The notes under the pieces were generated by a model, which was not told the origin of the DNA, did no database searches, and saw only the letters and a list, made by a program, of their open reading frames with translations. This document shows, piece by piece, positions 11,133-19,955 of a DNA stretch of 21,154 nt (position 1 is the stretch's first letter; the number at the start of each line of letters is the position of its first letter). Source of the DNA: a virus; the IMG/VR virus record IMGVR_UViG_3300000117_000129, positions 1 to 21,154 of that record. One strand, 5' to 3'. Position numbers and translations under genes: made by a program.

Positions 11133-11287
11133 TTTTTGAATGTGATGTTTGTAAAGAAGAGATAGCTCCTGTAAAAATTAGTAAAAGTGAAAATCTTTAT
11201 AAATGCCCTAGTTGTAATGCTATTCTCTACATTGAAAAGACAGTTGAATTTGAACCTGACATGGATCTAGATAGGACATTACATTGA
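11108..11287 (+). CDS. Small zinc-ribbon protein
   Basis: A 59-residue product whose start lies inside the polymerase 3' end, with AGGAGG at 11099-11104 only 3 bases before the ATG. Two CxxC knuckles (ECDVC and KCPSC) with 20 residues between form a typical zinc ribbon; the rest is acidic (FEPDMDLD). Zinc ribbons of this kind often mediate protein or nucleic-acid contacts in transcription or replication. Function is unknown. Its stop overlaps the -35 box of the promoter at 11284-11312, so it ends the replication transcription unit as the next one begins. Confidence 0.75.
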   Translation: MGDDTEDLVFECDVCKEEIAPVKISKSENLYKCPSCNAILYIEKTVEFEPDMDLDRTLH

Positions 11288-11312
11288 CTTATCCCATAAA
11301 ATACAGTATAAA
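11284..11312 (+). promoter_or_regulatory. Sigma70 promoter for the small-gene train
   Basis: TTGACT (11284-11289), exactly 17 bases, TATAAA (11307-11312), followed by ATGGG. Only one mismatch to consensus lies in each box. It sits at the end of the replication genes and points into the run of small genes from 11325 on. Confidence 0.75.
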
Positions 11313-15129: not shown

Positions 15130-15167
15130 GTCTTATCCTTGTTGATTGATTGTTATAACAGCAAAAT

Positions 15168-15173
15168 ATTATA
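15168..15173 (-). promoter_or_regulatory. Candidate -10 box for the minus-strand basic-protein operon
   Basis: TATAAT on the minus strand, about 40 bases before the start at 15129. No good -35 hexamer lies 16-18 bases upstream, so the call is weak. Confidence 0.3.
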
Positions 15174-15264
15174 CTAAAAACGAGTTTTGTAGAAGTATTT
15201 TTTTACCTTATAGTTGCATAGAAATTATTTTGTTTTTTCTTTTTGTGTTTTTTTCTGAAAATGA

Positions 15265-15365
15265 GGTAACCGAGGTAACTTTTGAAGTAACCTACTGTAT
15301 TTACTATGTTTTATCGGTTACTTATCGGTTACTTACGGCTCATGGACCAGGTAACTCAGGTAACC
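15265..15365. repeat. Cluster of GGTAAC/GGTTAC boxes
   Basis: GGTAAC occurs at 15265, 15274, 15350 and 15359. The reverse-complement form GGTTAC occurs at 15316 and 15327, and AGTAACC starts at 15286. They are arranged as close pairs 9, 11 and 9 bases apart, with the outer pairs in one orientation and the central pair in the other. This is the kind of layout seen for operators or origin iterons. Confidence 0.65.
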
Positions 15366-15454
15366 GCTTCTACGTAGAACAAAGGTTTACTATCATGCCT
15401 TGCACAAGAAATAAAAGATTTATTTTTAAATATATATATTGTATATACAACTAT

Positions 15455-15925
15455 ATGAATAAATTGACGCCTAAGCAAATCAAGTTTGCTACCCTCATTG
15501 TCAGTAAAGGTGATAGAATGTCAGCTTCTGATTGTGCCAAAGAAGCAGGTTACTCTGAAAAGGCCTGCAAACAACAAGCTTCCAACTTACAAAATCCAAA
15601 GATGTTTCCTCAAGTTGTAGACGAGATAGAAAGATTACGTAGAGAATGGCAAGAGAAGTATAAAGTTAGTTACTCAAGACATATAAAACGCCTGGATGAT
15701 TTGTCTAGAGGAGCTGAAGAGTCAGGAAATTGGGCCGCTGCAGTTGCAGCTGAAAAGTCCAGAGGACAGGCAGCAGGACTTTATATTGATAGAAAAGAAA
15801 TATTGACAGGATCTATTGATCAATTATCTAAAGTTGAAGTAGAAGAAAAACTCAAAGAAATAGAAAAACAATTTAGCATTAACATAGAAGATGCTGATTT
15901 TGTTGAACTTCCTGACAAAGAATAA
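15455..15925 (+). CDS. terS: Terminase small subunit
   Basis: A 156-residue product starting at MNKLTPKQIKFATLIVSKG. This opening, followed by SASDCAKEAGYSEKACKQQASNLQNPK, is the classic helix-turn-helix DNA-recognition domain of phage small terminases. A helical oligomerisation region follows (VDEIERLRREWQEKYK, HIKRLDDLSRGAEESGNWAAAV), then LYIDRKEILTGSIDQLSKVEVE and an acidic tail that would contact the large subunit. No SD is visible: the start is preceded by an AT-only run with TATACA about 12 bases upstream, so initiation could be leaderless or SD-independent. Unusually, the large subunit is about 4 kb downstream, not adjacent. Confidence 0.88.
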   Translation: MNKLTPKQIKFATLIVSKGDRMSASDCAKEAGYSEKACKQQASNLQNPKMFPQVVDEIERLRREWQEKYKVSYSRHIKRLDDLSRGAEESGNWAAAVAAEKSRGQAAGLYIDRKEILTGSIDQLSKVEVEEKLKEIEKQFSINIEDADFVELPDKE

Positions 15926-17545: not shown

Positions 17546-17711
17546 CTTAACTTTAAATATCAAACGTCAACAGAGAGCATTAAGAGCTATGAGACAAGCT
17601 GAGTCGAGTGTTTGGAAACATTTTTGGTTTAGTATTTTTGGTAAAGTATGGCACAATAGCATCACTCAAAACGAGGATGGTGTGCCTTATGACAACAAAA
17701 CCAGAAACTAG
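17538..17711 (+). CDS. 57-residue basic small protein
   Basis: GGAGG sits 9 bases before the ATG, inside the methyltransferase 3' end (overlap of 8 bases). The product is MDNLTLNIKRQQRALRAMRQ then SSVWKHFWFSIFGKVWHN, an amphipathic basic helix followed by a Trp/Phe-rich segment. Unknown family. It overlaps the nuclease gene by 23 bases. Confidence 0.6.
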   Translation: MDNLTLNIKRQQRALRAMRQAESSVWKHFWFSIFGKVWHNSITQNEDGVPYDNKTRN

Positions 17712-18132
17712 ATTTTGGAAAAAACTGAAAGAAGTGACTCCGAGAATACATTGGACTAGAATAGAATCCACAAGTTCTCCAGGAGTGCCTGATTTGCACG
17801 GTGTTTTTAAGAATGAAATGGGAGATTCTGTCATGTTTTGGGCAGAGTTGAAATGTACTCGTGTGAAAAAGATAAGTATAACGCCTAAGCAAATTGCGTG
17901 GAATTACAGTTATAATTTGGCAGGTGGCAATAACTTTATCATGGCACAGGCCCTCGGGGGGAGGGGGGTGTATATATATTCAGGATCCCAGGCCCGTGAA
18001 CTCTCCATTACGGGATTGGATACTCCGCCCGTGGCCATTGTACCCTATCCATGGAACCAGGAGCTGATGCTACGCTGCTTCGATCCCGTTCTCCATTACG
18101 GGGATCTATCGCCCATTGGTGCTGATATATAG
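17689..18132 (+). CDS. VRR-NUC-like nuclease
   Basis: A 147-residue product; the ATG at 17689 is preferred because the frame upstream is coded by the previous gene. The nuclease core is GVPDLHG (D35), FWAELKC (E53, K55) and ITPKQIAW (Q68), the D...ExK...Q arrangement of VRR-NUC/PD-(D/E)XK enzymes. A conserved end follows (GVYIYSGSQARELSITGLD, then IVPYPWNQ). The 3' third is more GC-rich than the rest and contains two G6 runs (17956-17968) and two copies of the repeat that fills the following noncoding DNA, beginning at 18002 and 18090. Likely role: processing of branched or flap DNA in replication or packaging. Confidence 0.83.
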   Translation: MTTKPETRFWKKLKEVTPRIHWTRIESTSSPGVPDLHGVFKNEMGDSVMFWAELKCTRVKKISITPKQIAWNYSYNLAGGNNFIMAQALGGRGVYIYSGSQARELSITGLDTPPVAIVPYPWNQELMLRCFDPVLHYGDLSPIGADI

Positions 18133-18145
18133 TATTAGTCCGGGG
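18002..18145 (+). repeat. Repeat copies A and B, inside and at the end of the nuclease gene
   Basis: TCTCCATTACGGG occurs exactly at 18002-18014 and 18090-18102. Copy B continues into a GCCC box, GTGCT, ATATATAGTAT and CCGG. Compared without gaps to the copy at 18566, about 29 of 42 positions agree. These are therefore coding members of the same repeat family as the noncoding array. Confidence 0.65.
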
Positions 18146-18157
18146 GGACACAATGGG

Positions 18158-18186
18158 TTGACAGCAGCTCCTGATTATCCTATAAT
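18158..18186 (+). promoter_or_regulatory. Perfect-consensus sigma70 promoter P1
   Basis: TTGACA (18158-18163), exactly 17 bases, TATAAT (18181-18186), followed by GGTGGG. It is the strongest promoter by sequence in the window and drives transcription into the repeat array, starting near 18193. Confidence 0.85.
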
Positions 18187-18192
18187 GGTGGG

Positions 18193-18315
18193 ATGTTAAT
18201 GTTTCTCGGATCGTTGGTCTTTGTATTGGGGGCATTCCTCATACGATTCAAGGGTTTTCGCAAGCCTTTCTTTTGGCTCGCTACTCTGACCATTCTCCAT
18301 CACGTCGATTACTAG
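18193..18315 (+). CDS. Possible leaderless 40-residue membrane peptide
   Basis: The ATG lies 6 bases after the TATAAT of P1, where transcription should begin, so the message would be leaderless; a second ATG at 18199 is in frame. The product is MLMFLGSLVFVLGAFLIRF, a clear membrane span, then FRKPFFWLATLTILHHVDY. Its 3' end overlaps a diverged repeat copy. The small size and repeat context keep confidence low. Confidence 0.35.
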   Translation: MLMFLGSLVFVLGAFLIRFKGFRKPFFWLATLTILHHVDY

Positions 18316-18645
18316 CGTTTCGACTATAATAGCTATATCAATAGCTGCTGGTTCCGCCAGGAGATGGTAGATGTGTTTTCCATTGCCCGTGAATAGTGGC
18401 CTTTGTGCCACATTACTTATAACAGTTCCGGCTCGGCAGGAAAAGCTCACAGCTGCGTTTTCCATTGCCCGTGAATCATGCCCTGTCGACCAATAATAAT
18501 ATAACAATTTCCGGACGGCAGTAGCGGCTGACCATTTAGGTAAGCAATCTTTTGCCTCTAAACGTTTTCCATTGCCCGTGAATCTCGCCCTTTAGTGCTA
18601 CTATATATATAAAAAGCGTGTCCACCTGGTAACCTGACTGGATGG

Positions 18646-18674
18646 TTGACAGCTGCAGGAAGATCCTATATAAA
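18646..18674 (+). promoter_or_regulatory. Strong sigma70 promoter P2
   Basis: TTGACA (18646-18651), 17 bases, TATAAA (18669-18674), then TGGG. It shares GGTTGACAGC and CCTATA with P1 and sits about 30 bases before the gene at 18701. Confidence 0.85.
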
Positions 18675-18700
18675 TGGGATATAATAAAAGGAGAAAGAAG

Positions 18701-19012
18701 ATGAATAAAACATGTAAGCAAAGAGTTGAAGAAGAATGGAAAGACCGTCAGAAAGATTTACAAGATCCTGAGTTTGATCACTTGGGCTTTGACTATGTGG
18801 ATCCGCACACGTGGGACGATCAGCCCGAAGGCTATTGGCGTTGGCAGTTTAGTTGGGGCGGACCAGGAGACGAGTTGCGGGGATATGTGAACGAGAACAG
18901 AGAGCTGCATCGGCTCGAATATTGGTTCTTGGACTGGTTCGATGGGGCATCGGTGCAGGTGTCACCGGGCAGCGATCCCTGGAATAAGATGCAAGAAATG
19001 TTGGCCGTGTGA
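18701..19012 (+). CDS. 103-residue acidic Trp-rich conserved phage protein
   Basis: AAGGAG lies 7 bases before the ATG at 18701, which is preferred over the in-frame ATG at 18674 because that codon lies on the -10 box. The product begins MNKTCKQRVEEEWKDRQKDL, then FDHLGFDYVDPHTWDDQPEG, YWRWQFSWGGPGDELRGYV and LEYWFLDWFDGA. The WRWQFSWGGPGDE and EYWFLDWFDGA parts are of a type I recall from many phages without known function. The gene has its own strong promoter and its own terminator, so it is an independent single-gene unit, and it is flanked on both sides by the repeat array. The codons become GC-rich after the first 20. Confidence 0.8.
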   Translation: MNKTCKQRVEEEWKDRQKDLQDPEFDHLGFDYVDPHTWDDQPEGYWRWQFSWGGPGDELRGYVNENRELHRLEYWFLDWFDGASVQVSPGSDPWNKMQEMLAV

Positions 19013-19028
19013 AATATATAATAGTCTT

Positions 19029-19058
19029 GGCTCTGCTGATAGTGGCGGAGCCGTTTTT
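19029..19058 (+). terminator. Intrinsic terminator after the 103-residue gene
   Basis: GGCTCTGC (19029-19036) pairs with GCGGAGCC (19045-19052) through 8 pairs including one G-T, with loop TGATAGTG, then GTTTTT. It lies 16 bases after the stop codon. Confidence 0.85.
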
Positions 19059-19424
19059 CGTTATCTTCTTTTAGTTTCCATTGTGGGCGAATCGTACCCT
19101 TTCTAGTAATATATAGTATATTTACCGGGCAGCACGCCGCTGCAGGTGTGTTTTCCATTAAAGATGAATTGTAGCCTTTGCTACCATTATATAGTATATA
19201 GCGGATGCCCTGGAATCGAGTTGCACAATGTGTGTTGAGTTTTGTTCACAAACATTTTCCATTGAGGCGAATATCTAGCCTTTGGACACTATTACTATAT
19301 ATAAAAAGCCACGGCAGGGGGTTGGGAAAGTTGCGTGGTAAATTTAAACTTATGTAATGGTCTTAAATCTTTTTTAAAAGAGGTGTTGTAGTTTCTGCTT
19401 TTTTCCTATAAAGTTAGGATAGAA
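19059..19424. repeat. Noncoding tandem repeat array, right block
   Basis: About 365 bases without a gene. Repeat cores lie at 19075 (TTTCCATTGTGGGCGAAT), 19151 (TTTTCCATTAAAGATGAAT) and 19255 (TTTTCCATTGAGGCGAAT). Each is followed by CCTTT; the second forms a perfect GTAGC-CTTT-GCTAC hairpin (19171-19184). Then come ATATATAGTATA or TATATATAAAAAGC and a GC patch. Spacings of 76 and 104 echo the 82 and 107 of the left block. The end (19330-19424) is AT-rich leader DNA with TATAAA at about 19408, before the next gene. Confidence 0.78.
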
Positions 19425-19709
19425 ATGGAGAAATATACTATGTCAAATGACTTAACTCTTAGCGACATTCAAACAGTTATCAAAGCTGAATTGGAAAAAG
19501 CTAAAAGAGATATTCTGGTCAAACAGAATTCTCATGTTAATAGTATTGGTAGTGAAGTTATTAACTATCAAGCTGTTTGTCAGTATCTCGATTATGAGAT
19601 ATTTGAATTTGTAATGACCTCAAACAATCCCGAGGTTAAAAGATTTGGGCAAAAGATCATGCAAGGTCTTGCTGAAAGATTTAACATTAATGAGAGGTTA
19701 AATACTTAG
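19425..19709 (+). CDS. 94-residue helical protein, unknown
   Basis: Two starts are possible: ATG 19425 (AGGAT 5 bases before) and ATG 19440 (GGAG 9 bases before, giving 89 residues). The product is largely helical: LTLSDIQTVIKAELEKAKRD, INYQAVCQYLDYEIFEFVM, then RFGQKIMQGLAERFNINERL. No family is recognised. Short helical proteins directly before the large terminase are sometimes packaging or virion accessory factors; that is only a positional hint. A strong terminator follows. Confidence 0.72.
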   Translation: MEKYTMSNDLTLSDIQTVIKAELEKAKRDILVKQNSHVNSIGSEVINYQAVCQYLDYEIFEFVMTSNNPEVKRFGQKIMQGLAERFNINERLNT

Positions 19710-19773: not shown

Positions 19774-19955
19774 ATGCCTGAAAACTGGCGTGCTTCCATC
19801 TGGGTTTGACTGGTATCAGCTCAAAAGCTTTCCTATATTGCCAAACCATACTAGATATGGTATCTAGATCATGGGCGACCCCCTAAATGCGGACACGGAC
19901 TTGCACAGGAAGGGCTTATATAAGTTAGAGACAGTCAGTCAGGGGGGTAAAAAAT
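19774..19955. promoter_or_regulatory. Leader region of the large terminase gene
   Basis: No gene is seen in these 182 bases. They hold a perfect inverted repeat (19851-19867), a GC-richer stretch (GGGCGACCCCCTAAATGCGG, about 19872-19891) and TATATA at about 19918. An AGGGGGG ribosome binding site lies 8 bases before the terminase ATG. A packaging signal (cos or pac) could lie here by position, but nothing in the sequence identifies one. Confidence 0.45.
19851..19867. repeat. Perfect inverted repeat upstream of the large terminase
   Basis: CTAGATA-TGG-TATCTAG, a 7-bp perfect palindrome with a 3-base centre, about 90 bases before the terminase ATG. An operator-like site or part of a packaging signal is possible. 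Confidence 0.5.

What the first reader, a model, noticed from the sequence alone, without database searches (positions are those of the whole stretch)
18002..19320. Degenerate tandem array of promoter-bearing repeat modules between the replication/packaging genes
Directly visible: a core TTTTCCATTGCCCGTGAAT is identical at 18376, 18458 and 18565. Diverged copies lie at 18002, 18090, 18293, 19075, 19151 and 19255, and perhaps at 18199. Most copies go on to a CCTTT box, an AT-only TATATA(GTATA) stretch and a CCGG/CGGCAG patch. At about +67 to +81 there is a -35-like element: TTGACA at 18158 and 18646, CTCACA at 18446, CTGACC at 18528, TTGCAC at 19221 and TTGGGA at 19322. Two of these form near-perfect sigma70 promoters. 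The module therefore looks like a tandemly amplified unit carrying a promoter, in which some promoters stay intact and others have decayed. Possible roles are a transcription hub, an iteron-type origin (repeats plus AT-rich DNA) or a structured noncoding RNA array. The short hairpins around CCTTT change sequence but keep pairing in two copies (GTGGC/GCCAC at 18396-18411 and GTAGC/GCTAC at 19171-19184), which hints at RNA-level selection. It matches no standard feature class I know.
Basis: partly seen in the sequence, partly recalled or inferred. Interest (0 to 1): 0.87.

Follow-up and report, generated by a model that had tools for sequence, protein, structure and literature searches.

The report
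Phage promoter locus built from repeats
Uncultured marine phages related to SAR11 phages carry, at one fixed spot between their replication and packaging genes, a row of about nine same-direction DNA repeats leading into a cluster of strong host-type promoters, most likely a control region (possibly also a replication origin) of a sort not described before in these very abundant viruses.

Summary
The repeats are real. The core TTTTCCATTGCCCGTGAAT is exact at 18376, 18458 and 18565; copies at 18002, 18090, 18294, 19075, 19152 and 19256 are supported too. A model built only from other phages recovers the first-half units on its own. The unit (TYTCCATT, often a CACGA/GTGAA box, an AT-rich stretch at +35 to +48, then GC-rich DNA) recurs in one orientation at the same syntenic place, endonuclease to TerL, once per genome in related IMG/VR phages. 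It overprints coding sequence: in the endonuclease, CTC codes 41 of 49 leucines against 3% genome-wide. Sub-arrays of 2-4 units lead into three sigma70 promoters (18158, 18646, about 19386-19412) that share TCCTATANNNNTRGGA. The promoters lie at sub-array ends, not in every unit, so the 'decayed promoter per unit' idea fails. The proposed CCTTT hairpin is lost in the close relative L001, so the structured-RNA idea is not supported. New here: perfect DnaA boxes cluster in the same interval in relatives (37 of 45 boxes in 18% of the sequence), although this window has none. Best reading: a cis-regulatory, probably protein-binding array controlling a locally transcribed island (0.5). Main rival: an iteron-like replication origin using host DnaA (0.25).

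The parts
17689..18132 (+). Endonuclease-like gene (phrog_2165, which PHROGs labels DNA helicase, over residues 4-105); its last ~40 codons are overprinted by two array units
   Evidence: 'endonuclease' is inferred from the sequence, not from a family hit
18002..18069 (+). Array unit 1 (TCTCCATTAC), inside the endonuclease 3' end; spacing of 88 to the next unit is fixed in relatives
18090..18138 (+). Array unit 2 (TCTCCATTACGGGG), last unit before P1
18158..18193 (+). Promoter P1: TTGACA-17-TATAAT with TCCTATAATGGTGGGA
18199..18315 (+). Small hydrophobic ORF (38 aa, MFLGSLVF...ILHHVDY); relatives at the same place; contains a degenerate unit at its start and unit 3 at its 3' end
18294..18350 (+). 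Array unit 3 (TCTCCATCAC)
18369..18443 (+). Array unit 4
18451..18525 (+). Array unit 5 (missing from the close relative L001)
18560..18633 (+). Array unit 6, last unit before P2
18646..18679 (+). Promoter P2: TTGACA-17-TATAAA with TCCTATATAAATGGGA
18701..19012 (+). 103-aa gene of unknown function (phrog_36747 weakly); over 200 relatives in viral contigs
19028..19053 (+). GC-rich hairpin followed by TTTTT, terminator-like, just before the third sub-array
19072..19140 (+). Array unit 7
19144..19221 (+). Array unit 8
19248..19325 (+). Array unit 9, last unit before P3
19386..19419 (+). Promoter P3: weak -35 (TTGTAG, spacing 15) and TCCTATAAAGTTAGGA; the -10 block is kept in relatives
19425..19709 (+). 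94-aa conserved helical protein of unknown function between the array and TerL

Best explanation
The region is a cis-regulatory locus of a SAR11-phage-like podovirus: an orientation-locked array of short sites (TYTCCATT plus a nearby CACGA/GTGAA box), probably bound as DNA by a phage or host protein, whose sub-arrays sit directly upstream of three host-sigma70 promoters. These drive a small, independently timed transcription island (two small genes, then the gene before TerL) at the boundary between replication and virion genes. Units are gained, lost and eroded while the TYTCCATT site and its rough spacing are kept, even where it overlaps coding sequence. Shown: the array, its single locus, fixed synteny, single orientation, promoter association and nucleotide-level constraint. 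Inferred: protein binding, the effect on the promoters, and the timing.
For: One array per genome, same strand, at the same syntenic spot in five phage records. About 40 sigma70-type promoters of at least 11 bits on the coding strand in 26 loci, all within the array locus and nearly all preceded by a unit at a narrow distance (P1 68-80, P2 75-94, P3 about 100-120 nt), none on that strand in the flanks of those loci. P1, P2 and P3 are the only exact TCCTATANNNNTRGGA matches in the window; 13 matches at up to 2 mismatches against 3.2 expected. A more distant clade (L067) has single doublet units, one before each of several promoters. The site is kept in coding sequence in two frames, with CTC for 41 of 49 Leu at 3.3% background. 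In cultured HTVC027P, which has no RNA polymerase of its own, gp30, gp33 and gp34, which lie in the same TerS-TerL interval, form their own temporal expression clusters (PMC12753301). A close relative lacks one unit.
Against: No binding protein identified. The distance from last unit to promoter varies by 10-20 nt within each promoter class and shows no clean helical phasing, unlike a classical activator site. The DnaA-box cluster points to replication as well. Whole-record scans find other sequences scoring as promoters, including a conserved one before gene 11567, so not all promoters carry units. The promoter matrix is E. coli's, from my own knowledge. No transcript data exist for this clade.
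Confidence: 0.5

Rival explanations
1. The array is a replication origin of iteron type: a phage initiator binds the repeated sites, host DnaA binds a nearby DnaA box, and the AT-rich blocks open; the promoters supply activating transcription.
For: Direct repeats plus AT-rich blocks. Perfect DnaA boxes (TTATCCACA) fall in the 1.5 kb before TerL in 37 of 45 cases, in 18% of the sequence. Array-bearing loci have a box more often (21 of 37) than others (6 of 37), Fisher p = 6e-4, not corrected for phylogeny. In L014 and L067 the boxes lie 100-160 nt behind the units. Iteron plasmid origins combine iterons, DnaA sites and A+T-rich DNA (PMC5043065).
Against: The window, L001 and L132 have no perfect box. 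Spacing of 65-130 bp is unlike 17-22 bp phased iterons. No GC-skew switch at the array. No recognisable initiator gene found. Boxes beside promoters could equally be DnaA-regulated transcription.
Confidence: 0.25
2. RNA-level element: the C-rich sense-strand sites act in the transcript, for example as Rho-loading/termination or antitermination sites that insulate the promoters from one another.
For: All units are on the transcribed strand; columns after the core are richer in C than G; in L067 units follow gene ends, once directly after a hairpin; a terminator-like hairpin at 19028-19053 precedes sub-array 3; the + strand folds slightly better than the reverse.
Confidence: 0.13
3. Packaging (pac) region recognised by the small terminase subunit.
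For: Lies between the TerS-like gene (ending at 15925) and TerL (19956); record ends fall at different places in the gene order, compatible with circular permutation.
Against: The TerS gene is about 2 kb away; the well conserved non-coding block just before TerL (inverted repeat at 19851-19867) is a better pac/cos candidate; units are promoter-associated.
Confidence: 0.07
4. Repeat-driven recombination cassettes without a binding function, maintained because they shuffle small genes.
For: Unit loss in L001; extra genes between P2 and the 103-aa gene in L113, L114, L115 and L123; tRNA-Cys inserted between units.
Against: Selective retention of TYTCCATT inside coding sequence and across clades while the rest of the unit diverges is not explained by recombination alone.
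Confidence: 0.05

Closest known systems
PeSLs (promoter early stem-loops) of T4-like phages
   Same: Intergenic promoter-associated repeat cassettes around small unknown genes, with unit gain and loss
   Different: Here a single locus in an HTVC023P-type phage, direct repeats with a conserved site upstream of the promoter, and no constant stem-loop; PeSLs are composite promoter-terminator motifs, dense in shuffled regions of T4-like genomes (as cited in PMC4503421; the original papers are not held)
SAS/ESAS of cluster K mycobacteriophages
   Same: Short asymmetric repeats, nearly all in one orientation, tied to gene starts
   Different: SAS is a 13-bp element typically 3-7 bp before start codons, in the place of the ribosome-binding site and dispersed (PMC3203893); here sites lie upstream of the promoter in one array
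Iteron origins (P1, F, RK2, ori-lambda)
   Same: Direct repeats, A+T-rich blocks and, in relatives, a host DnaA box
   Different: Spacing of 65-130 bp, embedded promoters and genes, no known initiator, no DnaA box in this window (comparison: PMC5043065)
Other repeats in the TerS-TerL interval of cultured relatives (HTVC027P GCTTGAA heptads; 023Pt_psg01 GGGCCCACCC family)
   Same: GC-rich repeats in the same interval of related phages
   Different: Unrelated sequences; no CTCCATT sites there

Membership tests
PeSL (T4-like phages) | Strong host-type promoter in the cassette | tested here: met
   P1 and P2 at sub-array ends; not in every unit
PeSL (T4-like phages) | Stem-loop/terminator in each cassette | tested here: inconclusive
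   Hairpins at 19028-19053 and 19129-19143; not constant across units
PeSL (T4-like phages) | Dispersed through a T4-like genome | tested here: not met
   One locus per genome; TerL relatives are HTVC023P/HTVC027P-type phages
SAS/ESAS | Element within a few nt of start codons, in the place of the RBS | tested here: not met
   Units lie upstream of the promoters, not at start codons
Iteron replication origin | Multiple direct repeats in one orientation | tested here: met
Iteron replication origin | Short, helically phased spacing (17-22 bp) | tested here: not met
   Mostly 65-130 bp spacing, mean 92
Iteron replication origin | DnaA box nearby | tested here: inconclusive
   Absent in the window, present in 21 of 37 array-bearing loci
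Iteron replication origin | Strand-skew switch at the site | tested here: inconclusive
   No GC-skew switch, but gene direction dominates the skew, so this is weak evidence either way
Iteron replication origin | Replication initiates there / drives autonomous replication | not testable with these tools
   Needs marker-frequency or plasmid experiments
Structured ncRNA array | Conserved stems with compensatory changes between units and relatives | tested here: not met
   no Rfam family
pac/cos site | Terminase recognition or cleavage | not testable with these tools
   Needs virion-end sequencing

The most novel reading that the evidence does not exclude
A previously undescribed combined control/origin locus: an unknown phage protein binds an orientation-locked array, and with host DnaA couples replication of these SAR11-type phages to firing of the adjacent promoters that open the late genes.
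Probability: 0.22. Interest if true: 0.75.

Novelty: new variant of a known kind. Interest (0 to 1): 0.56.

Why it matters
HTVC023P-type phages are described as widespread in the ocean (PMC9599517), yet I found nothing on how they time transcription or start replication; HTVC027P has no RNA polymerase of its own and all its early genes are of unknown function (PMC12753301). This locus gives named sites (TYTCCATT units, TCCTATANNNNTRGGA promoters, DnaA boxes in relatives) that make both questions directly testable, and shows a nucleic-acid site strong enough to constrain codons in the genes it overlaps.

Tried and rejected
(1) A promoter in every unit: no -10 after the other -35-like hexamers; AT-rich blocks only mildly promoter-like. 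(2) Conserved RNA hairpin at CCTTT: lost in L001. (3) Core pairing with the ribosome-binding site of gene 19425 (AATGGAGAA is the exact complement of TTCTCCATT): not kept in most relatives, which have AAAGGAG. (4) GC-skew evidence for an origin: none. (5) Helical phasing: the spacing periodicity is driven largely by the fixed 88 and 99 nt spacings shared by relatives. (6) 'The only strong promoters in the genome': rejected by whole-record scans. (7) Rfam, tRNA search and blastn against cultured phages for the window array: nothing. (8) Structure models of the two neighbouring proteins (pLDDT 80 and 74) gave no convincing PDB match. (9) Hits of TTTTCCATTN5TGAATN5CCTTT in viral contigs outside the close relatives are single, weak matches without an array.

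Full report
What was checked. The window is 21,154 bases of a 31,626-base virus record. The gene order is replication genes (SNF2-type helicase, primase, a UvrD-like helicase by sequence, PolA), a TerS-like gene (ORF 15146-15925), a C5 methyltransferase, an endonuclease-like gene, the finding, a 94-aa gene, and TerL. TerL is nearest, at 62-70% identity, to phage 023Pt_psg01, Pelagibacter phages HTVC027P and HTVC023P, and phage DSL-LC04. A related array-bearing phage contig also sits in a single-cell genome of an uncultured alphaproteobacterium, AG-910-K03. A SAR11-like host is therefore likely but not shown.

The 19-mer core is exact at 18376, 18458 and 18565, the 10-mer TYTCCATYRS is about ten times over-represented and clustered, and longer families tie in 19074, 19151 and 19255. 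A model trained only on other genomes picks out window 17998, 18086, 18290, 18456 and 18564 as its top five hits.

Related sequence. Close relatives (L001/L081, L083, L084, L085, L086) share the array; L001 lacks the 18458 unit. Searching with the neighbouring 103-aa gene uncovered more than 200 relatives, many of whose flanks carry diverged versions of the same unit. From 320 non-redundant sites the common anatomy is TYTCCATT, a variable stretch with a frequent CACGA/GTGAA box, an AT-rich block at +35 to +48, and GC-rich DNA at +51 to +66; mean spacing is 92 nt. Five phage records have the array at the same syntenic place, in one orientation, and no second cluster. A more distant clade (L014, L019, L041, L056, L067) has doublet sites too, in L067 one ahead of each of several promoters. 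The cultured relatives have no CTCCATT sites there but other GC-rich repeats.

Nucleotide-level constraint. The array runs into the 3' end of the endonuclease-like gene and through the small hydrophobic ORF. The site is read in different frames (CTC CAT in some, TCC ATT in others), and the leucine codon under it is CTC in 41 of 49 sequences against a 3.3% genome background. This is the clearest evidence that the site works as DNA or RNA rather than as protein. The binomial value given ignores phylogeny and is only indicative.

Promoters. P1 (18158) is a perfect sigma70 promoter and P2 (18646) nearly so; P3 (about 19386-19412) has a good -10 but a weak -35. All three contain TCCTATANNNNTRGGA, which has exactly three perfect matches in the window. 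In 26 related loci the coding-strand promoters of at least 11 bits fall within the array locus, each class at a narrow distance behind the last unit. Whole-record scans temper this: other sequences score as high, many of them antisense to the genes, and one before gene 11567 is conserved.

DnaA boxes. Perfect TTATCCACA boxes, rare elsewhere, concentrate in the 1.5 kb before TerL: 37 of 45, in 18% of the sequence. They lie about 190 nt before TerL in the nearer relatives, about 600-690 nt before it (at the P3 position) in more distant ones, and behind the units in L014 and L067. Presence of array and box is associated (21 of 37 against 6 of 37), but the loci are related to one another, so the p-value is only a guide. 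The window itself has none, so a DnaA role cannot be essential here unless another site serves.

Function. The promoter association across clades, and the unusual temporal classes of genes in the same interval of HTVC027P (PMC12753301; gene positions), favour a regulatory locus. The DnaA boxes keep an origin in play, and the two are compatible. RNA structure in the array is not supported. How the units act, and through which protein, is inferred and not shown.

Noticed in passing
L134:1937-1989, L136:1883-1935, L144:3902-3954, L149:3843-3895, L177:3934-3986, L184:2507-2559 and others, mostly between P2 and the 103-aa gene: A leader hairpin with core ACCGAATCCGTTTNGAAGT inside a freely covarying outer stem: 96% of cells paired, 5 pairs with changes on both sides, covariation score 0.41 against 0.17 shuffled; no Rfam family. 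Looks like an undescribed phage 5' UTR RNA.
   Followed up: partly
L133, L155, L157, L168, L169, L172, L178, just upstream of the 103-aa gene: Further interchangeable leader modules (GAGTCAGGAGCTGAGGAGAACC..., GCGAGTGACCCGATAGGCGAGAGGCGC, GGGGTTGG...CCAACCCC) combined like cassettes.
   Followed up: partly
L117:4163-4236, L119:4478-4551, L121, L122, L123, L125, L127, L128, L131: A tRNA-Cys gene sits between array units in many relatives; tRNA-Cys is the reported integration site of pelagiphage HTVC022P (PMC12753301).
   Followed up: no
window 19851-19867: Perfect inverted repeat CTAGATA-TGG-TATCTAG in a well conserved non-coding block just before TerL; candidate packaging site or late promoter.
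   Followed up: no
window 11284-11312: Promoter-like sequence before gene 11567 with counterparts in G004, G006 and G007.
   Followed up: no
L067:4153-5520: Doublet CTCCATTCTCCATT recurs at 579-nt steps (-1840, -1261, -682 from TerL), each ahead of a promoter and small gene, two of them with a DnaA box.
   Followed up: partly
window 18701-19012: 103-aa protein family with 45 invariant columns in 31 sequences and no convincing PDB fold match.
   Followed up: partly
L109:3918-4865 and L108:5326-7764: Unrelated GC-rich repeats (GCTTGAA heptads in HTVC027P; GGGCCCACCC family in 023Pt_psg01) in the same TerS-TerL interval.
   Followed up: no
window 19009-19074: Possible 21-aa hydrophobic ORF (GTG start, MKYIIVLALLIVAEPFFVIFF) overlapping the stop of the 103-aa gene and the 19028-19053 hairpin (read directly).
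   Followed up: no
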